64,000 nucleotides of DNA, from NCBI GenBank assembly GCA_946902875.1, contig OX336340.1, forward strand, positions 4,175,739-4,239,738, written 5' to 3'. The notes under the pieces are model-generated. The model saw only the letters and a program-made list of their open reading frames with translations, ran no database searches and was not told where the DNA came from. Made by a program: the position numbers and the translations under genes. This DNA is from Nematopogon swammerdamellus (lineage: Eukaryota > Arthropoda > Insecta > Lepidoptera > Adelidae). Of the stretch, positions 4,532-48,787 are shown in pieces. Positions within the stretch are counted from its first letter, which is position 1; each line of letters starts with the position of its first letter.

Positions 4532-4844
4532 TACAGACCTAATTACACATGCTTGTAATTTTCTTCCCCACACGGAAACCTACAAGGTTGTGACATTCTT
4601 CCGTAGAGTATTGCCTGGTTTGCATTTTCGTTCGTCATCATGAAAAAGCGCGTGGCAATCGCTTGCATTATGCATTGTGCATATTTTAAAAGCCCAATTT
4701 ACATTTTATGGAAATTATGTAGTGACAATATCGTCGCCACACCATTTTCGTTGTCCTTTTACAATTTTGCGATTGGTTAATTACAAATTAATTGCGCGAG
4801 GAGATAGGTACAGACAGTTGGATATAGGTAATAGCTAATAGTTA

Positions 4845-5545
4845 GTTGGGTAGGATTTAACCTGTCCGAACTGGTACGCATCGTACTGAATTTCCCTTGT
4901 CTGATAGTAGAGTCGGGTTTAACACGTCCGGACTGGTACGCATCGTACTGAATTTCGCTTGTCTGATAGTAGAGTAGGGTTTAACACGTCCGGACTGGTA
5001 CGCATCGTACTGAATTTCCCTTGTCTGATAGTAGAGTAGGGTTTAACACGTCCGGACTGGTACGCATCGTACTGAATTTCCCTTGTCTGATAGTAGAGTA
5101 GGGTTTAACACGTCCGGACTGGTACGTATCGTACTGAATTTCCCTTGTCTGATAGTTAAGTAGGGTTCAACACGTCCGGACTGGTACGCATCGTACTGAA
5201 TTTCCCTTGTCTAATAGTTGAGTAGGATTTAACACGTCCGTATTGGTACGCATCGCACTGAATTTCCCTTGTCTAATAGTTTGGTAGGGGTTGACACGTC
5301 CGGACCGGTACGCATCGTACTGAATTTCCCTTGTCTAATAGTTTGGTAAGGGTTGACACGTCCGGACTGGTACGCATCGCACTGAATTTCCCTTGTCTAA
5401 TAGTTGAGTAGGGTTTAACACGACCCGACTGGTACGCATAGCACTGGTTAAAAGGTTCGCCGAAGCGGTTAATGTATGCGTTCGTGTTTTCTGTGTTCAG
5501 TGTAGCTGGCAAGACCAACTGGCGGCATGGCATGGTGTTTTAAGA
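4845..5545 (+). repeat. SINE-derived 62-bp minisatellite (10 units)
   Basis: Unit starts at 4859, 4921, 4983, 5045, 5107, 5169, 5231, 5293, 5355 and 5417, an exact 62-bp period. Each holds CGTCCGGACTGGTACGCATC or a close variant, plus GAATTTCCCTTGTCT. The unit resembles the SINE core (GGGTTTAACCCGCCCGGGTT, then GGTACCACCGCACTGAATG). The DNA after the last unit continues into the SINE's TTCGTGTTTTC and TTCAGTGTAGC segments. This is a SINE whose core was amplified in tandem. The minus-strand frame across it is incidental. Confidence 0.85.
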
Positions 5546-14096: not shown

Positions 14097-15631
14097 TGTT
14101 GCCCGCGGCTTCGCTCGCGTGAAATTCGTATTTAAAAAAAAGAAAGTAAGTAACTAAAGGCGGGCCCGAAGGCTGATCTGCGCTCACGTAAACGATATTC
14201 TTTCTCGATGAAAGTAACTAAGGGCGAGGCGGAAGGCGGAGCTGAGTTCAGGAAGAAGAAAAACATTCTTGAAGAAAGTAAGTAACTAAGAGCGAGGCCG
14301 AAGGCCGAGCTCTATTCTGGAAGACCATAAACCTTCTCGAAGAAAGTAAGTAACTATGGGCGAGGCCGCAGGCCGAGCTGCGTTCAGGAAGAAGCTAAAC
14401 CATCTTGAAAAAAGTAAGTAACTAAGGCGAGGCCGAAGGCCGAGCTACGTTCGGATAATTGAAAAACCATCTCGAAGAAAGCAAGTAACTAAGGGCGAGG
14501 CCGAAGGCCGAGCTGCGTTCAGGAAGAAGCTAAACCATCTTGAAGAAAGTAAGCAACTAAGGCGAGGCCGAAGGCCGAGCTACGTTCTGACAAATGATAA
14601 ACCATCTCGAAGAAAGCAAGTAACTAAGGGCGAGGCCGAAGGCCGAGCTGCGTTCAGGAAGAAGCTAAACCATCTCGAATAAAGTTAATTAATATTAAGA
14701 TTGAGTTAATTTAATTTAAATTTTATTATAAAGGCCACGCTTCTAACGGCAAATATACAGTGCATCCTAGAACCTCGCGGTTATTCCCGGCTGGATGGAA
14801 AGACGCCCGATGCTATCACCTTAGTGCCATGGACTAAGGGTAGTTCTTTGATGTGGGACGCCACTTTTGTTCTCACATTGGCTCCAAGTCACGTTAGGAC
14901 ATCTTCAAGAGCGGCTGGCGCGGCCGAGGCTGGGGCGGAGAGCCTCAAACGCAGCAAATATAGAAATATGATTCAAGATTTCGAATTTGTTGCGTTTGCG
15001 GTTGAAACCCTCGGTCCGTGGAGCAGTGAAGCCAAAAGAGGCTTGAGCTGGTTGACGCAACTGGTGTCCCGTCATCAAGGGCTTATGTACTTCATTCAAA
15101 GGGTAAGCCTTGCCATCCAGCGGGGTAATGCCGCAAGTGCTCTAAGAACATTTGAAAATGCCCGTTTTGATAGTTATTTTAATGTTTGTTAGGTAGGTTT
15201 AATTCTTTAGTTATTAATATTACTTTTTTATTTTTATGAAATAAATAGATTGAGTAAACTATATTATATTCTATCGAAGAAAGGAAGTCTATAAGGGCGA
15301 GGCCCGAAGGCGGAAGAGGGTTTTTGGTTTACCCGAACGCAGCTCGGCCTTCGGCCTCACACTTAGTTCCTTCCTTTCTTCCAGAAGGTTTATCGTCTTC
15401 CTGAACGCAGCTCGGCCTTCGGCCTCGCCCTTACTTACTTCCTTTATTTGAGAAAGGTTTATCGTTTACCTGAAAGCTGCTCGGCCTTCGGCCTCGCCCT
15501 TAGTTAGTTACTTTCTTTAAGAAGGTTTATCGATTACCTGAACGCAGCTCGGCCTTCGGCCTCGCCCTTAGTTACTTACATTCTTCTTTGGAATACGAAT
15601 TTCACGCGAGCGGAGCCGCGGGCTCAGCTAG
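14097..15631. mobile_element. Foldback Helitron-like element with 67/68-bp minisatellite arms
   Basis: Both ends are the family H 3' terminus, pointing outwards: the left reads GCCCGCGGCTTCGCTCGCG and the right ACGCGAGCGGAGCCGCGGG...CTAG (15628-15631). The left arm (14130-14690) holds GAGGCCGAAGGCCGAGCT units starting at 14294, 14362, 14429, 14497, 14564 and 14632. The right arm (15270-15600) holds the inverted units. A family F tail occupies the centre. Confidence 0.75.
14803..15250 (+). pseudogene. Family F retroelement C-terminal domain, 5'-truncated
   Basis: The frame reads TPDAITLVPWTKGSSLMWDA, then LTLAPSH, FVAFAVETLGPWSSEAK and QRVSLAIQRGNAASALRTFE, ending in a stop at 15190-15192. 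It is homologous to the frame at 9753 and open across about 130 codons. It lies between the inverted arms of the foldback element, so it probably inserted there. No polymerase domain precedes it. Confidence 0.6.
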
Positions 15632-29594: not shown

Positions 29595-30946
29595 TAGCTT
29601 TATCCCGCGCATTCGCTCGCGTGAAATTCGTATTTCAAAAGAAGAAAGTAAGTAACTTAGGCCAGGACCGGAAGGTCAACTGGATTCAGATAAACAATAA
29701 ATTAAGTAACATACTAAAGGCGAGGCCGAAGGCCGAGCTGCGTTCAGGAAGAGTATAAAGCTTTTCGAAGAAAGTAACTAACAAAGGGCGCGGCCGAAGG
29801 CCGAGCTGCATTTAGGAAGACTATAAACCTTCTCGAAGAAATTAAGTAATTGAGGGCGAGGCTGAAGGCCGAGCTGCGTTCAGGAAGACTATAAACCTTC
29901 TTGATGAAAGTAAGTAACTGAGGGCGAGGCCGAAGGCCGAGCTGCGTTCAGGAACACGATAACCTTTTCGAAGAAAGTAAGTAACAGAGGGCGAGGCCGA
30001 AGGCCGAGCTGCGTTCAGGAAGACCATAAACCTCCTCGAAGGGAAGCACTGACGTGGCACAAAGTTCATCCGGTGTTATGGGCTGACATCACGGATGTTG
30101 TGGGTGATGTAGCCAACCGTGTCAGTTTCCATAAAAAAAAGTAAGTAACTAAGGGCGTCGCCGAAGGCCGAGCTGTATCCTGGAAGACGCTGACAGTAAG
30201 TAACTATGGGCGATAGTTACATACTTTCTTCAAGACGGTTTATAGTATTCCTGAACGCAGCTCGGCCTTCGGCCTCGCCCTCAATTACTTGATTTCTTCG
30301 AAAAGATTTATAGTCTTAATGAACGAAGCTCGGCCTTCGGCCTCGCCCTTAGTTACTTACTACTTGCTTCGAGAAGGTTTATGGTTTTCCTGAATGCAGC
30401 TCGGCCTTCGGCCTCGCACTCTGTTACTTACTTTCTTCGAAAAGGTTATCGTCTTCCTGACCGCAGCTCGGCCTTCGGCCTCGCCCTCAGTTACTTACTT
30501 TCATCAAGAAGGTTTATAGTCTTCCTGAACGCAGCTCGGCCTTCGGCCTCGCCCTCAATTACTTAATTTCGTCGAGAAATTTTATAGTCTTCCTGAACGC
30601 AGCTCGGCCTTCGGCCTCGCCCTTACTTACTTACTTTGTTCGAGAAGGTTTATGGTCTTCCTGAACGCAGCTCGGCCTTCGGCCTCGCCCTCTGTTACTT
30701 ACTTTCTTCGAAAAAGTTATCGTCTTCCTGAACGCCGCTCGGCCTTCGGCCTCGCCCTCAGTTACTTACTTTCTTCGAGAAGGTTTATTGTCTTCCAGAA
30801 TGCAGCTCAGCCTGAAGCCTCGCCGTTAGTTACTTACTTTAGTTGAGAAGGTTTATTGTTTACCTAAACGCAGATCGGCCTTAGTTACTTACTTTCTTCT
30901 TTTGAAATACGAATTTCACGCGAGCGAAGCCGCGGGCAAAAGCTAG
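29595..30946. mobile_element. Foldback Helitron-like element with minisatellite arms
   Basis: The left end (TATCCCGCGCATTCGCTCGC) and the right end (ACGCGAGCGAAGCCGCGGGC...AGCTAG at 30943-30946) are outward-facing family H 3' termini. The left arm has GGCCGAAGGCCGAGCTGCG units near 29722, 29788, 29858, 29926 and 29993. The right arm (30200-30890) has about ten inverted units. Peptides such as VFLNAARPSASPSVTYFL repeat on both strands because of the array, not because of a gene. A truncated SINE sits between the arms. Confidence 0.8.
30039..30140 (+). repeat. 5'-truncated Family S SINE tail
   Basis: Only GGGAAGCACTGACGTGGCAC to the A run; about 100 bp. It interrupts a minisatellite unit between CTCCTCGAA and GTAAGTAACTAAG, so it is younger than the array. 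Confidence 0.8.
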
Positions 30947-39967: not shown

Positions 39968-40302
39968 AGTATCCGGTACGGGACCCTATTCTGTCTGTCC
40001 GAGGGCTGTATCTCTTGAACCGTAATAGGTAGCCCGTTGAAAATTTCACAGAATATGTGTAATATAACTAAATATAAGAAAAATAAGAAAAAATAAAAAA
40101 AATCAGGGGGTTCCAATAGAAGAAATCAAAAAGTGTATGCACGCGCGCCCTCTACCGAATAGAGTATGAAGCATTTTAACTAATCATGAATTTTAACTAA
40201 TATGAAGCATTTCATAACACACCATAGATGGCGTCATTGGCGCTAACCATGACATGGCGATACGGAACTCTCGGTGCGCGAGTCCGACTCGCACTTGGTC
40301 AA
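39968..40302 (-). repeat. Family A repeat, complete
   Basis: GTATCCGGTACGGGACCCTA, a short GTCTGTCC core, CGTAATAGGTAGCCCGTTGA and GGTGCGCGAGTCCGACTCGC. The microsatellite core is contracted. Confidence 0.75.
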
Positions 40303-40309
40303 TGTTGAT

Positions 40310-40685
40310 TTTTTTTTATAACTTACATACTAAAGTTTATTTACCTTAAGGAAACATACAACAATATCTAAGCAATAAAAAATATCCACCAACCTCGACG
40401 ATCGGATCAAAGAGTCCGACCGCATTCGACGTCGTTTACCTTCAGTAATTTCTCACCGGTACATAGCACAACCGAGCTACCGACGTTTGATGGTTCGAAA
40501 TTCGAATGTCCAATTGTTCGTGTCATTTCAAACCGCGCTACAGCTACAGGCGTTGAGGCAACCTAATGAGCAGCTATTTAGATAATAAAGCACGCATTTG
40601 AAACATCAGCTATTGGCTGTACGTGCGTTTGTCTCGACGCAACCGTTTGACAGCGCGCCTCTAGGCACGCACGCGAATAAAAAAA
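40310..40685. other. Unassigned, moderately GC-rich
   Basis: The stretch 40390-40670 is richer in CpG than its surroundings and unique in the window. I cannot identify a gene or splice structure. Confidence 0.3.
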
Positions 40686-40688
40686 AAT

Positions 40689-41001
40689 CCGGCCAAGTGC
40701 GAGTCGAACTCGCGCACCGAGGATTCCGTATCGCCATGTCGTGGTCAGCGCCACTCACGCCATCTATGGCGTGTTTATGAAATGCTTCATATTAGTTAAA
40801 ATTCATGATTAGTTAAAATGCTTCATACTCTTTTCGGTTTGATGGCTCGCGCGCATACACTTTTTAGTTTCTTCTATGGGAACCCCGTGATTTTTTTTAT
40901 TTTTCTTATTTGTTGTTTTATCGGCCATAATAACACATATTCTGTGAAAATTCAACGCGTTACCTATTACGGTTCAAGAGATACAGCCCTCGGACAGACG
41001 G

Positions 41002-41277: not shown

Positions 41278-42193
41278 GGGCACACTAAAAGTTTCCGGAA
41301 TTGGCCACTTACATAAACAATATTTAAAAAGTAATTACAACATTTGAAAATGGAACTCTTTGGCTGTAGAATGCAGTTTGTTTCATCTGACTGTCAATTG
41401 TTTTTACATTGTGGCGCCATTTTAAAAATTGCGTGTCTACATTAACATAAATTTAACCCGGGAAAATTTTCGTGGTATGATTTTCTACGATTTTAAGTGT
41501 AATTTTACAGCTCATCAGAGCCTCGCTCGGCTTCAATCTGCTTTTGGCGATGAAGCACCATGCAAGACGACTATTTATTGCTGGTTTGCAGAATTCAAGC
41601 GCGGTCGTGTCAATCTCAGTGACGAATCTCGGGATGGTCGCCCGTTCACCGCTGTGAACAACAAAAACATCGATGCTGTGCGCCGTATGATCGAAACAGA
41701 CAGGCATGTGACCTACCATGAGATTCGGGCATCCTTAGACATAGGCATGAGTCAAATACAATCAATCCTACACAAACATTTGGGTGTGAGAAAGCTGTGC
41801 TCGCGGTGGATCCCACACAATTTGACCGAGGCTCAAAAAACGCACCGCGTCACTTGGTGCAATGCCATGCTTACCAGATTCAACAAAGGCGCCTCAAATT
41901 TGGTGTGGGACATAGTAACAGGTGACGGCACCTTGTGACTTTTTTCTGTTCCCAAAAATTAAGAACCAATTACGCGGTCAACGATTTTCATCACCAGAAG
42001 AGGCTGTCGAAGAATATGAAAAACACGTTTCTGAGGTCACCACGGAGGAGTGGCACAAAAGTTTTCAAAATTGGTTTAATCGTATGAAAAAGTGCATTTA
42101 CGCAAAGGGAGAATATTTTGAGAAACAATAAATTCATTTTTGACCTTTAATAGTATTTTATTCTTATTAATTCCGGAAACTTTCAGTGTGCCC
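41278..42193 (+). mobile_element. Mariner element with internal deletion
   Basis: The 5' TIR GGGCACACTAAAAGTTTCCG matches the inverted 3' end AGTTTCCGGAATT with one mismatch (CACTGAAAG). TA precedes the element (41276-41277); CA at 42194-42195 is a likely mutated TA duplication. Length 916 bp against about 1.3 kb for intact relatives, so roughly 0.35-0.4 kb is missing. Confidence 0.9.
41429..42131 (+). pseudogene. Mariner transposase, internally deleted
   Basis: The N-terminal part (41429-41938) contains the DNA-binding helix-turn-helix region (LARLQSAFGDEAPCKTTIY, then CWFAEFKRGRVNLSDESRDG). It also has the WIPHNLTEAQ linker (WVPHEL-type) and the start of the catalytic domain (LVWDIVTGD). 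After that first catalytic Asp the sequence jumps to APCDFFLFPKIKNQLRGQRF and ends YAKGEYFEKQ. The segment with the second and third catalytic Asp is gone and the frame shifts at the join (about 41934). Inactive; could persist only by trans-mobilisation through its TIRs. Confidence 0.9.
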
Positions 42194-42674: not shown

Positions 42675-42965
42675 GTCAATGAAATCTGTAATTTGCTGTT
42701 TTTTTGTTTTGTTTATATAATATTAGTTACGTATTTGTGTAATGCTGTCGATTTAAAATTAAATAAACAAATAAATAAATAAGACATCTAATTTGAAAAT
42801 AGCCCGACTGCTATAATAGTGGTCACACAATTGAATATTGTGTATGTATACAATTTTAATACTGTGGCATTCGTGCGAAATACACAATTGTTTCAGTTGG
42901 AAACAATAGAGATATCACAATGCTTCGGTACTATCGTAATCTCATCTCTATCAACAATATACTAT
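42675..42965. other. AT-rich spacer with a CCCGACTGC remnant
   Basis: TAGCCCGACTGCTATAATAG at about 42801 resembles the CCCGACTRCG terminal motif of nearby foldbacks. The frame 42819-43007 has no recognised domain. Confidence 0.35.
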
Positions 42966-44857
42966 AAAAATCGTTTAAATAAAAAAAAAATAGTTATAAA
43001 AAACTAAAACCCGTCTACGAAAAAGCAAATTATGAAAATAGTTTAACTATAACTAAAAATAACAAAATAATATTTTCCATATAATTTATCAGATACAGCA
43101 TTTCTCTTTTTATATTGATTTTACCTTAGCACTAACTCTATAAATTTTGATAAATTTATTATTTTTAACGTTCTAAATATAGAGCCGTGGTCGGGCGTTC
43201 TTCGTTCAACAAGACAAGTGAGACCGTCGTTGTGCATTATAGCCGTTGACGTTCGGTATGTACCTATGTATCTACTTATAATAATTTTAGATTGGCTCTG
43301 ACTGATCTTACAAAAAGATGCCAGTATGACACAATGGCGATGGCCGTCCTAAGTTCCGCGCTCTAATAATGCACGACGAGGGCCTCACTTGTCTTGTTGA
43401 ACGAAGAACGCCCGACCACGGCTCTATATTTAGAACGTTAAAAATAATAAATTTATCAAAATTTATAGAGTTAGTGCTAAGGTAAAATCAATATAAAAAA
43501 AATAGTTATAAAAAACTAAAACCCGACTACGTAAAAGCTAATTATGAAGATCGTTTAAATAAAAAAAAAATAGTTATAAAAAACTAAAACCCGTCTACGA
43601 AAAAGCAAATTATGAAAATAGTTTAACTATAACTAAAAATAACAAAATAATATTTTCCATATAATTTATCAGATACAGCATTTCTCTTTTTATATTGATT
43701 TTACCTTAGCACTAACTCTATAAATTTTGATAAATTTATTATTTTTAACGTTCTAAATATAGAGCCGTGGTCGGGCGTTCTTCGTTCAACAAGACAAGTG
43801 AGACCGTCGTTGTGCATTATAGCCGTTGACGTTCGGTATGTACCTATGTATCTACTTATAATAATTTTAGATTAGCTCTGACTGATCTTACAAAAAGATG
43901 CCAGTATGACACAATGGCGATGGCCGTCCTAAGTTCCGCGCTCTAATAATGCACGACGAGGGCCTCACTTGTCTTGTTGAACGAAGAACGCCCGACCACG
44001 GCTCTATATTTAGAACGTTAAAAATAATAAATTTATCAAAATTTATAGAGTTAGTGCTAAGGTAAAATCAATATAAAAAGAGAAATGCTGTATCTGATAA
44101 ATTATATGGAAAATATTATTTTGTTATTTTTAGTTATAGTTAAACTATTTTCATAATTTGCTTTTTCGTAGACGGGTTTTAGTTTTTTATAACTATTTTT
44201 TTTTTATTTAAACGATCTTCATAATTAGCTTTTACGTAGTCGGGTTTTAGTTTTTTATAACTATTTTTTTTATATTGATTTTACCTTAGCACTAACTCTA
44301 TAAATTTTGATAAATTTATTATTTTTAACGTTCTAAATATAGAGCCGTGGTCGGGCGTTCTTCGTTCAACAAGACAAGTGAGGCCCTCGTCGTGCATTAT
44401 TAGAGCGCGGAACTTAGGACGGCCATCGCCATTGTGTCATACTGGCATCTTTTTGTAAGATCAGTCAGAGCCAATCTAAAATTATTATAAGTAGATACAT
44501 AGGTACATACCGAACGTCAACGGCTATAATGCACAACGACGGTCTCACTTGTCTTGTTGAACGAAGAACGCCCGACCACGGCTCTATATTTAGAACGTTA
44601 AAAATAATAAATTTATCAAAATTTATAGAGTTAGTGCTAAGGTAAAATCAATATAAAAAGAGAAATGCTGTATCTGATAAATTATATGGAAAATATTATT
44701 TTGTTATTTTTAGTTATAGTTAAACTATTTTCATAATTTGCTTTTTCGTAGACGGGTTTTAGTTTTTTATAACTATTTTTTTTTTATTTAAACGATTTTC
44801 ATAATTAGCTTTTACGTAGTCGGGTTTTAGTTTTTTATAACTATTTTTTTTATTTTA
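42966..44857. repeat. Giant near-perfect palindrome built of nested hairpins
   Basis: The symmetric part is 42966-44799 (1,834 bp) around a 161-bp centre (43803-43963). The left arm is 837 bp and the right 836 bp. Each arm contains an inner hairpin (GTGGTCGGGCGTTCTTCG with its inverse) around the same ~160-bp loop, and CCCGTCTACG and CCCGACTACG words. Sequence variants also mirror: the outer arms have AAAATCG, the inner arms AAGATCG. A 58-bp extra piece follows on the right. No coding. Confidence 0.9.
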
Positions 44858-44917
44858 GGCTTTTTTAAAAACTGTTTGCATACTTTAAATGTTGTATGTA
44901 ACTCGTATATTGATTTT

Positions 44918-45210
44918 TTTTTATGGAATCTGCCACATCACCTACAGGCTACAACATCCGTGATGTCAGCCCATAACACCGGGTGAACTTGGTGCCACGT
45001 CAGTGCTTCCCTTCGGTCGTACCGGCTACACTAAATACATAGCCGTTTCTACCGACCTTTCATTCAGTGCGGTGCGGTGGTACCAACACGGGCGGGTTAA
45101 ACCCTACCACCGAGTAATATAAGAAGGAAGTCATATCCCTTAGTCGCCTTTTACGATATACACGGGGAGAGATACAGTGGGGCTATTCTTTTATATAAGT
45201 AGCGGCTTGA
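44918..45210 (-). repeat. Family S SINE with ACCGTGTGGGG-type head remnant
   Basis: Poly(T), GCTACAACATCCGTGATGTC, ACACCGGGTGAACTTGGTGC, TTCAGTGCGGTGCGGTGGTA, then ATCCCTTAGTCGCCTTTTAC and GGAGAGATACAGTGGGGCTA. The segment CACATCACCTACAGGCTACA shows a small duplication. Confidence 0.8.
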
Positions 45211-45219
45211 TACTATCCG

Positions 45220-45555
45220 TCCGTTTATTTGTCGTGATCTCTATTTGAAACTAAAGTTTTCTGCAAATAGCGCATGAGTGAGTACCTACATATATATACA
45301 AATTATGTATAGTTGAACGATGTAGTCTTGAAGTAAAATGAAAAGTCAGTCAGAGCAAGACCGAAGACTGAGCTGTGTAAGTACACGATTTTCTTTGTCT
45401 ATGTAAGTATATATATCTGGCTGGGGTGAAGCAGATTCGGTAAGTAAGTAAACCAATCAGTTCAAGGTCCAAGACCGAGGGAGGTTTCAGGTTGTACATA
45501 GTTGAATAATGTACTCACTCGAAGCAGGTAAGCCACTAAGGCGAGGCCAAAGCTA
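45220..45555. other. Degenerate repeat debris
   Basis: GAGCAAGACCGAAGACTGAG, CAAGGTCCAAGACCGAGGG and AAGGCGAGGCCAAAGC look like decayed GAGGCCGAAGGCCGAG minisatellite units. Nothing else identified. Confidence 0.35.
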
Positions 45556-45559
45556 CTGA

Positions 45560-46180
45560 TATTATTTTTATAGTAAGCGCGACATGTGGCGCCGAGCCAC
45601 CCATAAGGTGTCTAGCGATGCCCATGGACATTCGGTAGCATGCGGAGGCTGCGAATGCCATGCCGGCCTGACAGGTGCCCAGGTTGAAGGACCCGAGACT
45701 GTACTTGGGGGAAAATATTTCTCTCTGTTTGTATTTCAACAGGCTCTGATTTAGCTATGTATTCCTACGGAGTTGCAGTGGTTTTAGATCGCGGGACATT
45801 TGGGAGTCACCTACTATTCGCACGGCTCGACGCTGGATCGAGTCCAGAGGCGCCAGCTGGTATTTGACTGAGCCATCCCATAGGTGCGAGCAGTACCGAA
45901 TCTGCGATTTATACGGCCTTGCCCTCGATGTCACGCCGGAAGTTTAGATCGTGCGAAAATTCGACTCGGAGGACCCCGAGGTGGTCGCAAAATTTAAGTG
46001 ACGTGCCTTGGTAGGAAGGAGCTGGTGTGAACGCCGCTCTCTTCGCACTGAACGCGCAAACTTGTATCTTGGAGGTATTTAACTTGACCAACTTGCTACG
46101 GCCCATTCGGAAATAGAGCCGAGTGTTTGCTCAAGTTCAGACACAAGGCTTCGCCTCTTCTCATCCACATCCCGCCTAGT
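45560..46180 (-). pseudogene. Jockey-like LINE RT C-terminal region
   Basis: Minus-strand translation gives EQTLGSISEWGRSKLVKLN, TSKIQVCAFSAKRAAFTPAP and LGVLRVEFSHDLNFRRDIEG, the region after the RT active site. Further on come YSLGSFNLGTCQAGMA and the 3' UTR with GCGCCGAGCCACCCATAAGG reversed. Frameshifts and internal loss separate the parts. Confidence 0.7.
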
Positions 46181-46184
46181 TGAA

Positions 46185-46540
46185 GGGTATCTGGTGTAGA
46201 ACCCGTGTTCCGTACTCTCGTATGTATAACAATGATATGTTGCCCCCTGAATGCTACGCCCACGCCTTCAACGTTAGCAAGGCTCAGTGCTGCGCATTAT
46301 CTGCGAAGGTCGATTTGAAGGTCCTTTTGCTTTCCAAGCCAGTTTCTAAGTCAGCGTCATACCTGTCTGGAAGCACCTGAACCTCCTGGGCACCGCCATT
46401 TCCAAAGGCGTAGGTTTCCGGCAACTAATCGAGTCTAGGGCTAAAACTGCACCCAGAAAATTGGGAATACTTTTCCGCAATCGGCGGTTCTTCTCTTCCA
46501 CAATATCCCGCTTAGCTGAAGGGTAACTTGCATCCGAAAA
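46185..46540 (+). pseudogene. Second jockey-like RT fragment, opposite strand
   Basis: Frames include LNVSKAQ-type AFNVSKAQCCALSAKV, then LLGTAISKGVGFRQLIESRA and APRKLGILFRNRRFF, homologous to SKAKLASRKLGILYRCRRFF at 58 kb. Several frame changes. It meets the minus-strand fragment tail to tail near 46180. Confidence 0.65.
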
Positions 46541-46569
46541 TATTGTAGGTATTAGGTATATTTAATGTA

Positions 46570-47035
46570 CCTACCTTTTTTTTTATGGAAACTTGACACG
46601 GTTGGCTACATCACCTACAACATCCGTGATGTCAGCCCATAACACCGGGTGAACTAGGTGCCATGTCAGTGCTTCCCTTCATTTCGCGCCGGCTACACTG
46701 AACTGGACGGAAAACACGAACTATTTACATAGCCGTTTCGACCGACGTTTCGCTCAGTGCGGTGGTATCAACCCGGCCGGGATACACCCTAACACCTAGT
46801 AAGGTAAGAAGATATATAGGTTCCTTACCTATTGTCTCTATTGGACAAAGGGGGAAGCACTAACGTGGTATCCGAACCACGGTCAGCCTCCAACAGTCGG
46901 GCGGTCATCCATCCAATAACTGACCGCACCATTAAGCTGCCGAGGCTGACGATCCCTTAGTCGACTTTTACGACATGCGACGGGGAGAGATGCAGTGGGG
47001 CTATTCTTTTTAAGTACCGACCTCACACGGTACAC
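46570..47035 (-). repeat. Family S SINE with two heads in series
   Basis: Reading the minus strand: GTACCGTGTGAGGTCGGTAC head (47033-46951), then GTCAGCCTCGGCAGCTTAAT plus a 5S-like GCGGTCAGTTATTGGATGGA head (46949-46870), a disrupted junction, then core and tail (46810-46570) with poly(A). It also holds a short inverted GGGGGAAGCACTAACGTGG piece. Confidence 0.75.
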
Positions 47036-47039
47036 CTAC

Positions 47040-47930
47040 ACTACATATTATGCTTACACTAGGTACCTACATGGACATTTAATACCAATTTATTTTAGCA
47101 TAGTACTGTATCTAATAATAATATTATATATCTATATAAAATTTGCGGTAGATCAGTGAGTAAGTATGTAGGTAGGTATATTACCAACAATACCATCACA
47201 GAATAGAAAAGAGTACTCCGTACAGAAGCTGCTCTGTACAAACACTCACAAAGAAATAGCTACTCTGCGACGACGCGATAAAGTACAAATTGACTCGCCC
47301 AGAGCTGCATGCCTAACCACGATAATTGCCTACATTTCGCTTCTCTTTCTGTCGTGTAACTCTATCTCGAAAGCGCGCCGTTCAGCGCGTTAAGGGCTGT
47401 GTCTTTGTGCTGTCTTATTGTGAGGAATAAAATGAAGATGATACCTACCAACTTTTATCGTTCTAGCTACCAACGATATGATATTTAGCTACGGCAAATT
47501 CATGCGAACAAATTCATGCATGCGTTAGCGTCACAATTAGTTTCTCACATCGAAGCGTGCATTGCGTGCAACCTTCCAGTGATAGTTTTGTTTGATCAAT
47601 AAATTTAATGATCAATGATCATCTACAATGTACCTATTATCCTTATACGAATTAGGCCATACACACCACGCTGTTCGGCGTACTAATGTTATTGGCAATA
47701 TAATAATATCATTTTAAATCAATGACCTCCTACTATATGAATAAATAAATTACTAGAAATAAATCAAAATGCTACTAAACAAAATACTTACCTTTCTTCG
47801 TCTCTCGGCAATGAAAAAAAAGACAAGTTTTCATTTGTCTGTTGACTTTTGCACCCGTCCACTGCACAATAATTACGTGATTTCGACATTTTCTAAATTC
47901 GAAAGCGCCACACGCCCGGTCTGGCTGGAT
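47040..47930. other. Unassigned region
   Basis: Mixed AT-rich and CpG-containing unique sequence. The frame 47769-47960 has no known domain. No repeat family recognised. Confidence 0.35.
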
Positions 47931-47934
47931 AGCG

Positions 47935-48200
47935 ACAGCCCACTGTTAATTGTACATTAGTCGGTACGCCAAGCGGTAGGCATTTAACTCGCGACCTTGA
48001 GCGAGTGACGAAGGCCTGATACCATGTCGCTTCTTCGCGTCGCGTCGTCGCGTGTCGTCGCGCGTCATGGGCGTATGTAACGTACCGAAACCGCGGGGGG
48101 CGCGCGGCGCGGTGCGCGGGCGACTACGTTTCATCGCGAATAATCGCGATTCGTACATGCGCCACACATTTTGCTCTATTTCTCTGTACACGTAAGTTTA
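47935..48200 (+). promoter_or_regulatory. GC-rich, possible first-exon region
   Basis: A CpG-dense block (GCGTCGCGTCGTCGCGTGTC, CGCGGGGGGCGCGCGGCGCG) stands out from AT-rich flanks and ends at CTGTACACGTAAGTTT, a good splice-donor match. It could be a 5' untranslated exon of a host gene read to the right. No coding or downstream exon is identified. Confidence 0.2.
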
Positions 48201-48254
48201 ATAGATAGCAAAGTATATATTTTCGGAATCGTAATTTAATTATCTTTAATTTGA

Positions 48255-48527
48255 TACCCCACTCAATATATTTTGAAAAACTAATTTGACATTTTGAGGC
48301 CGTGCGTCCGCCATTTTGAATTTTGAAAATTGTTATATAGCCTATGACACTCCCGTGAATAAGACAAATCCACTGGCATAAGAATTATTCAAATCGGCCC
48401 AGTACTTTAGGCTGTAGAGTGGAATATAGATAGTCACATACATACATACATACATACATACATACATACATACATACACGCCAAACTCATAACCCTTCCT
48501 TTTTTGGCTTCGCCGTAGTCGGGTAAA
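48255..48527 (-). repeat. Family E repeat
   Basis: The reverse strand begins TTTTTACCCGACTACGGCGA and has GGAAGGGTTATGAG, a GTAT tract (48435-48478), GGGCCGATTTGAATAATTC and GAGTGGGGTATC. Inverted relative of 28524. Confidence 0.55.
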
Positions 48528-48787
48528 AAGGTCTTTCATTAGTAGGTAACGATACGCCAAGGGGTGTATGTGTATCAGATACTGATCACGTTCCCATAAA
48601 ATATAACTTCCCATAAAATTTTACGATATAAAAAAACGTCTTATTAAGGTGAAATACGCGCACTTCACGTATTAAATTTGAGGAGTAAGTTTTTTATATT
48701 GTAAAAAAAATATTGTATGCGAACGTGATCAGTATCTGATACACATACACCCCTTAGCGTATCGTTACCTACTAACGAAAGACCTTA
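48528..48787. mobile_element. MITE with ~66-bp near-identical TIRs
   Basis: The left arm AAGGTCTTTCATTAGTAGGT...TCAGATACTGATCACGTTC recurs inverted at 48720-48787 with about two differences. Interior ~125 bp AT-rich. Sits between a family E and a family H copy. TSD not resolved. Confidence 0.8.

What the first reader, a model, noticed from the sequence alone, without database searches (positions are those of the whole stretch)
42966..44857. 1.83-kb near-perfect palindrome with mirrored internal variants
The arms are 837 and 836 bp around a 161-bp centre, and each contains its own hairpin. Small variants mirror exactly (AAAATCG outside, AAGATCG inside; outer loops share a G where the centre loop has A). 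This means the second half was copied from the first as a unit, or that arm-to-arm gene conversion operates. It could form a cruciform or long dsRNA and be a small-RNA source.
Basis: seen in the sequence. Interest (0 to 1): 0.75.

Follow-up and report, generated by a model that had tools for sequence, protein, structure and literature searches.

The report
Transposon end hairpin copied into palindrome
The palindrome is three copies of the long hairpin that ends one kind of jumping DNA in this genome, apparently made when the hairpin's end folded back and copied itself; a similar habit may keep the two sides of the hairpin matching in other copies.

Summary
The palindrome is real: 836-bp arms without a mismatch (42967-43802 / 43964-44799), 858 bp with stem mismatches, round a 125-bp loop. 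It is not free-standing. It is the 3' end, in triplicate, of a ~3.6-kb non-coding repeat whose body runs on to 48529 and which is abundant in the window's own 699-Mb genome. The repeat looks like a non-autonomous Helentron (HINE); its autonomous partner was not identified. In 27 of 32 loci read with flanks it ends in one hairpin; here in three. A variant found, as an exact 24-mer, nowhere else in the genome sits in both arms of the middle unit: one arm was copied from the other. In 38 single hairpins the outer 202 bp of the arms differ 0.17% within a copy and 1.7% between copies; the loop-proximal stem shows the reverse. Loop orientation varies between copies, one locus is a whole-element inverted dimer, and shortened 3' ends lie at T-runs. 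Best reading: the 3' end folds back, self-primes and copies itself. No reads were checked; the small-RNA idea is untested.

The parts
42963..43106 (+). Unit 1, outer arm s1 (S positions 44-187); left end of the structure; a T-run on the element strand (CGATTTT) lies at the end; true start probably 42967
43107..43499 (+). Unit 1 hairpin: stem X 43107-43240, loop 43241-43365, stem X' 43366-43499
43490..43510 (+). Junction J1: end of X' (AATATAAAAA) joined to a hairpin tip (AAATAGTTAT); mirror image of J2
43500..44266 (+). Unit 2, the middle hairpin, complete: S 43500-43686, X 43687-43820, loop 43821-43945 (centre of the palindrome), X' 43946-44079, S' 44080-44266; carries GAAGATCG in both S arms
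44257..44276 (+). Junction J2: hairpin tip T-run joined to X (ATATTGATTTT)
44267..44857 (-). Unit 3 hairpin, next to the body: X 44267-44400, loop 44401-44525 (opposite orientation to units 1 and 2), X' 44526-44659, S' 44660-44846 and a short A/T stretch to 44857
44858..47196 (-). Body of the host element (first part), 99.9% identical to copies on C19 and C20; no open frame of 150 aa or more
47197..48018 (.). Stretch absent from the other full copies compared, i.e. an insertion; ATACCAT at 47190-47196 recurs at 48019-48025
48019..48529 (-). Body of the host element (rest) with (ACAT)n microsatellite 48436-48478
48514..48529 (-). 5' terminus of the element on the minus strand: TTTTT then ACCCGACTACG (5' sub-terminal inverted repeat, 48514-48524); a 22-mer holding it has 868 exact matches in the genome

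Best explanation
The host is a non-autonomous, probably Helentron-type (HINE) rolling-circle transposon of ~3.63 kb on the minus strand: 5' end at 48529, 3' end formed by a ~770-nt hairpin S-X-loop-X'-S'. Its 3' end can fold back on itself and serve as primer on its own proximal arm. Copying outward from the inner stem rebuilds the distal arm, so the outer arms stay alike; the new 3' end is then joined to the target at a run of T. At this locus fold-back copying went through one hairpin more than usual: a molecule that already had two hairpins side by side (through a nested copy inserted near the S/X boundary, as on C19, or through the T-run of the tip priming on the A-run at the X'/S' boundary) folded round the loop of the middle unit and copied the right half, giving unit 1 as the mirror of unit 3. 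Shown: the element, its single hairpin in most loci read, the three units here, the mirrored unique variant, the arm pattern of the sampled copies. Inferred: the fold-back priming, the stage at which it happens, and the Helentron enzyme.
For: (1) In the 20 loci one side of the hairpin is the conserved body, the other differs from locus to locus after a T-run (L026 runs into another copy). (2) GAAGATCG: 2 exact matches of a 24-mer in the genome, one in each arm of the middle unit; 836 bp of arm without a mismatch. (3) 38 single hairpins: positions 1-202 differ at 12 of 7235 sites within a copy and 1.7% between copies; in 29 distinct ones 12 mismatches against 106 +/- 9.6 when arms are re-paired (0 of 2000 as low); positions 261-321 differ 5.1% within and 1.2-1.4% between same arms of different copies. 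Copying that starts in the inner stem and runs outward gives this. (4) C18:21197064-21204347: inverted dimer of the whole element round the loop, 6 mismatches in 3560 aligned bases, the halves closer to each other than to a sister copy (14 sites against 5 and 1), both ends at the 5' terminus within the shared T5/A5. (5) C6:19263000 (L042): the distal arm runs about 70 bp past the tip into mirrored body and stops at a T8 run. (6) Loop in both orientations relative to the body: 30 and 8 of 49 hairpins. (7) 10 of 10 listed shortened tips or tip junctions lie at or within four bases of a run of four or more T.
Against: No reads, intermediates or enzyme data. The stage (transposition intermediate or chromosomal repair) is not resolved. 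Gene conversion between the arms would also make them alike, though it does not by itself predict the unmatched inner stem. Selection for pairing could contribute. The copies are related, so they are not independent observations. The 202/203 limit was set after seeing the data, and a distant copy (C12, not in the 38) has mirrored differences out to about position 224, so the limit is not sharp. Mirrored variants also occur in single copies (13 outer positions), which conversion after insertion would explain as well. The tree behind repeated loop flips is weak and does not exclude one origin. The loop A also occurs in one distant copy and says nothing. No autonomous partner: 2 of 11 Helitron_like_N matches on C1-C4 lie within 15 kb of a listed 5' end, both in frames with stops (read off).
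Confidence: 0.6

Rival explanations
1. Nested insertion plus chromosomal repair: copy B inserted near the S/X boundary of copy A's hairpin; a later break in B's body was repaired by fold-back or gene conversion using A's hairpin, which removed B's body and created unit 1. No role for the transposition intermediate. (It overlaps with the best explanation, which allows a nested precursor, so the confidences do not add to 1.)
For: C19:16063827-16068111 shows such a nested pair, with A's S arm on the far side of B's 5' end. C14 (hairpins from 7208528) is another nested copy, with 1 mismatch and 1 gap in 3119 bp to its host. The loop of unit 2 is opposite to that of unit 3, as expected for a head-to-head insert.
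Against: Needs the complete loss of B's body and 5' end; the left end of the window structure already looks like a 3' end at a T-run. It does not explain the arm pattern of single-hairpin copies or dimer C18.
Confidence: 0.25
2. Ordinary gene conversion or replication slippage between long inverted repeats in the chromosome homogenises the arms and occasionally multiplies the hairpin; nothing special to this transposon.
For: Inverted repeats near a break give fold-back inversions in yeast (PMC10622511, abstract and passages). 13 outer positions carry a mirrored variant in only one sampled copy.
Against: Variants shared by several insertions (positions 55, 95, 153, 182, 202) are mirrored in each copy that has them, so matching arose in the transposing lineage; no mirrored variant was seen at positions 203-321 of the 38 hairpins.
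Confidence: 0.2
3. Assembly artefact: palindromic read or mis-joined repeat.
For: No reads could be examined; 836 bp of the arms are identical.
Against: Outer flanks are not mirrored; the 125-bp loop and unit-specific variants are kept; the structure is shorter than typical long reads (recalled) and the assembly has 39 contigs for 699 Mb.
Confidence: 0.05
4. Selection for a long double-stranded RNA or DNA hairpin keeps the arms complementary.
For: Near-perfect stem of ~320 bp; folding z-score -61.
Against: Selection for pairing should hold the inner stem too, but position 312 is mismatched in all 38 hairpins and 304 and 307 in most.
Confidence: 0.05

Closest known systems
HINE / DINE-1-like non-autonomous Helentrons (PMC4067079, passages)
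   Same: Sub-terminal inverted repeats, the 5' one close to the terminus and the 3' one further in; small palindrome by the 3' terminus (here TAGTT-TTTTAT-AACTA); microsatellite; variable T-runs at the ends; T-rich targets, no clear target duplication.
   Different: The 3' end is a ~770-nt hairpin with ~320-bp arms carrying tandem 68-bp repeats of the terminal sequence, not a short stem-loop; the autonomous partner is not shown.
Helitron2-type FoHeli elements of Fusarium (PMC5148889, passages)
   Same: Asymmetric terminal inverted repeats; 3' repeat ~20-40 bp from an ATTTT terminus in one group.
   Different: Short hairpins; a circular intermediate is proposed there, and no inverted dimers appear in the passages seen.
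Parvovirus terminal hairpins and rolling-hairpin replication (flip/flop recalled; rolling hairpin and head-to-head forms from abstract starts in a listing)
   Same: Works alike: self-priming 3' hairpin, loop in two orientations, inverted dimers.
   Different: A chromosomal repeat with one hairpin end; no viral gene was seen, and none was searched for. Not filed as a member.
Foldback / Galileo elements (PMC4168063, passages)
   Same: Very long inverted repeats.
   Different: Galileo has terminal inverted repeats and is placed in the P superfamily; here both arms lie at one end of the element.
Fold-back (inverted-duplication) rearrangements at double-strand breaks in yeast (PMC10622511, abstract and passages)
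   Same: Intra-strand annealing of inverted repeats, fill-in synthesis, hairpin cap, inverted duplication.
   Different: There a chromosome-break product, studied in nuclease-deficient cells; here recurrent and linked to a transposon end.

Membership tests
Helentron / HINE | Inverted repeats near both ends at unequal distances from the termini | tested here: met
   ACCCGACTACG 5 nt from the 5' terminus, the same repeat about 21-26 nt from the hairpin tip (read)
Helentron / HINE | Short palindrome close to the 3' terminus | tested here: met
   TAGTT-TTTTAT-AACTA just before the terminal T-run, read from the sequence; the right half varies in some copies
Helentron / HINE | T-rich targets, variable number of T at the ends, no target duplication | tested here: met
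   20 loci for the 3' end, 5 full copies for both ends; two natural empty-site comparisons (C19, C14) without clear duplication, within the ambiguity of the A/T runs
Helentron / HINE | Microsatellite in the element | tested here: met
   (ACAT)n 48436-48478
Helentron / HINE | Autonomous partner coding Rep/helicase (with endonuclease) and sharing the ends | tested here: inconclusive
   86 Helitron_like_N matches in the genome, none tied to these ends; only C1-C4 could be compared, because one search lists 100 of 868 places; flanks not fetched
Canonical Helitron | 5' TC and 3' CTRR | tested here: not met
   Ends are TTTTTACCC and ...CTATTTT; definition from passages of PMC4067079
Foldback / Galileo (P superfamily) | Long inverted repeats at the two ends of the element | tested here: not met
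   Both long arms are at one end
Parvovirus or endogenous parvovirus | NS1 / capsid genes | not tested
   No open frame of 150 aa or more in the element in the window; no search for parvovirus genes was run

The most novel reading that the evidence does not exclude
A eukaryotic rolling-circle transposon whose 3' end is a self-priming hairpin: transposition rebuilds the distal arm from the proximal one, can flip the loop as in parvovirus flip/flop, ends at any T-run, and sometimes runs on to make whole-element inverted dimers or, as in this window, multi-hairpin palindromes. That would be a hairpin-primed replication step in a Helitron-group transposon.
Probability: 0.4. Interest if true: 0.78.

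Novelty: new variant of a known kind. Interest (0 to 1): 0.56.

Why it matters
The 3' hairpin of Helitrons has been proposed to be a stop signal (passage of PMC3789558); how the 3' end is really made is, to my knowledge, open. Here natural copies (45 loci looked at) record a process: matched outer arms, unmatched inner stem, loops in both orientations, a dimer, T-run ends. If right, a 3' hairpin can be a primer and repair device and not only a stop, and such elements are a ready source of long, near-perfect palindromes in this genome (unnamed; probably an insect, my guess from its repeats).

Tried and rejected
Rejected: free-standing palindrome (body and copies elsewhere show a transposon end). 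Rejected: canonical Helitron (ends). Rfam: no match at gathering thresholds in the window. One exact 22-mer in IMG/VR: 0 matches, a narrow test. C22:19164951 as a run-on dimer: the far match is a shared interspersed repeat, by reading the sequence. Descent of the middle unit from C12:20354425, which shares the loop A: rejected, it has 30 substitutions and 10 gap breaks. Simple tandem duplication of one hairpin does not explain the opposite loop of unit 2. Papers: the listings (titles and starts of abstracts) showed none describing such a hairpin in a Helitron-group element; that says nothing beyond those listings. Not followed: C9:22088208, the one other match of the J1 pattern; the short body stub left of the two hairpins at C28:10597433; the tip of L060, which starts at S position 13 and was outside the list.

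Selection of data: the 38 single hairpins are 27 fetched as best matches to the window's hairpin or to its S-X piece, or met beside them, plus 11 of 12 from a second subfamily list (L058 dropped, arm cut off by the fetched stretch). Hairpins of five multi-hairpin loci (window, C14, C18, C19, C28:10597433) were left out of the arm test; L042, whose distal arm runs on, was kept. Position 281 counts as one-armed in two copies, once in each arm. Fisher tests: 15 and 2 against 0 and 7 (4 one-armed plus 3 fixed differences) p = 1e-4; block 131-135 counted once p = 5e-4; also without the fixed ones p = 0.006. Orientation counts are not frequencies, since most loci were chosen by likeness to the window.

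Full report
Observation. The window holds an inverted repeat with arms 42963-43820 and 43946-44803 round a 125-nt loop; the arms match without exception from 42967 to 43802. It is built from three hairpin units of 580-bp period. I write S (187 bp, with two 68-bp repeats), X (134-bp stem) and L (125-bp loop). The order is s-X-L-X' | S-X-L-X'-S' | X-L(reversed)-X'-S', then 44858 onward.

Surroundings. The middle unit (767 bp) searched in the window's own genome (699 Mb, 39 contigs; window = C8:4175739-4239738) gave 578 candidates, of which 40 were scored; these are 98-100% identical over nearly the whole length. In the 20 loci shown one side is conserved; the other differs from locus to locus after a T-run, except that L026 runs into another copy. 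The conserved side is the sequence that follows the palindrome in the window at 44858. Comparison of the window with five long copies shows an element of ~3.63 kb that ends at 48529 in the window; there it carries an 822-bp stretch, 47197-48018, absent from those copies. Of 32 loci read with about 0.5 kb or more on each side, 27 have one hairpin and five more than one: window, C14, C18, C19 and C28:10597433. Some were fetched because a table suggested two, so this is no frequency.

What the element is. Read on the minus strand it starts TTTTTACCCGACTACGGCGAAGCC, has a tetranucleotide microsatellite and no open frame of 150 aa or more in the window, and ends ...CGTAGTCGGGTTTTAGTTTTTTATAACTATTTT. 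Sub-terminal inverted repeats at unequal distances, a small palindrome by the 3' end, T-runs of varying length and no clear target duplication agree with the description of HINE/Helentrons (PMC4067079, passages) and of Helitron2-type FoHeli (PMC5148889, passages). Two nested copies give natural empty sites: at C19 the target CTCTTTTTATATTGA is split without clear duplication, and at C14 TTAAAAATAATA. A 22-mer of the 5' end occurs 868 times. The autonomous partner is not shown: of 11 Helitron_like_N matches on C1-C4, two lie within 15 kb of a listed 5' end, both in frames with stops.

Arm-to-arm copying here. A 24-mer with GAAGATCG is found twice in the genome, once in each S arm of the middle unit. 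The outer units have GAAAATCG; GAAGATCG was absent from all 32 other fetched stretches checked. Unit 3 agrees with the hairpins of L009-L012 at the sites compared; unit 2 differs from them by the mirrored pair (positions 50 and 718) and one loop base; unit 1 differs from unit 2 at the same sites and at one base of its outer edge. The junctions J1 and J2 are mirror images; a pattern for them returned both and one further place, C9:22088208, not followed. The right half is continuous with body and 5' end, so the left half is best seen as the copy (inference).

Arm pattern. For 38 single hairpins both arms were projected on one reference. At positions 1-202 the two arms of one copy differ at 12 of 7235 sites (0.17%), arms of different copies at 1.7%; re-pairing arms among 29 distinct hairpins gives 106 +/- 9.6 mismatches against 12 observed (0 of 2000 as low). 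At 261-321 it is the reverse: 5.1% within, 1.2-1.4% between same arms; 203-260 hardly varies. Re-pairing over 203-321 gives 96.9 +/- 0.6 against 96 observed (332 of 2000 as low), i.e. no matching there. Substitutions present in two or more copies are mirrored at 7 outer positions and one-armed at 2; in the inner part 0 are mirrored and 7 one-armed. Variants seen once: outer 13 mirrored and 8 one-armed, inner 0 and 6. The Fisher values are given under Tried and rejected. A distant copy fetched for another purpose (C12) has nine mirrored pairs of differences as I read, out to about position 224, so the limit is not the same in every copy.

Other traces. Loop orientation relative to the body: 30 one way, 8 the other, 2 with body sequence on both sides and 9 undetermined of 49 hairpins. 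A tree of 42 body sequences (25 different; one label, L073, rests on hit orientation) needs 3 changes, 3-4 in bootstrap trees; most forks are weak and one origin is not excluded. C18:21197064-21204347 is an inverted dimer of the whole element centred on the loop, 6 mismatches in 3560 aligned bases, both ends at the 5' terminus; on its right it abuts a shortened hairpin arm of another copy. At C6:19263000 the distal arm runs about 70 bp past the tip into mirrored body and ends at T8. C28:10597433 has two hairpins joined at GCTTTT|ATATTG, again at the S/X boundary. Ten of ten listed shortened tips or tip junctions lie at, or within four bases of, a run of four or more T; 37% of S positions 10-149 lie in such runs; flanking T blurs some borders.

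Mechanism. The most economical single process is fold-back priming of the element's 3' end: the end lies in, or is trimmed back to, the inner stem; it pairs with the proximal arm, copies outward (outer arms matched, inner stem not), and is joined at a T-run. Longer copying yields dimers, and reopening of the hairpin can flip the loop. For the window, a two-hairpin precursor folded round loop 43821-43945 and gained unit 1. Whether the precursor arose by nested insertion, as at C19, or by T-run priming at the X'/S' boundary, which the junction letters also allow, I cannot decide. Fold-back inverted duplication is shown in yeast (PMC10622511, abstract and passages); its role in this transposon is inference.

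Verdict. New variant of a known kind.

Noticed in passing
40000-40992: Another inverted-repeat element (several pairs of arms, 77-98% complementary) next to a GACA microsatellite; by eye part of it resembles the left flank of the C18 dimer.
   Followed up: no
47197-48018: 822-bp stretch inside the element body, absent from the other full copies compared, with ATACCAT at both borders.
   Followed up: partly
41426-41938 (+): 170-aa open frame matching Pfam HTH_48 (HTH domain in Mos1 transposase), E = 2e-9: probably a mariner remnant.
   Followed up: partly
14140-14685 with 15314-15585; 29719-30041 with 30215-30882: Pairs of 68-bp minisatellite arrays in opposite orientation a few hundred bp apart, two such pairs.
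   Followed up: no
L037/L038 (C14:7198000-7217800): An element inserted into the hairpin of a copy from which it differs by 1 mismatch and 1 gap in 3119 bp: perhaps insertion of a daughter into its own parent.
   Followed up: partly
4843-5446: 62-bp tandem repeat, 9.7 copies.
   Followed up: no
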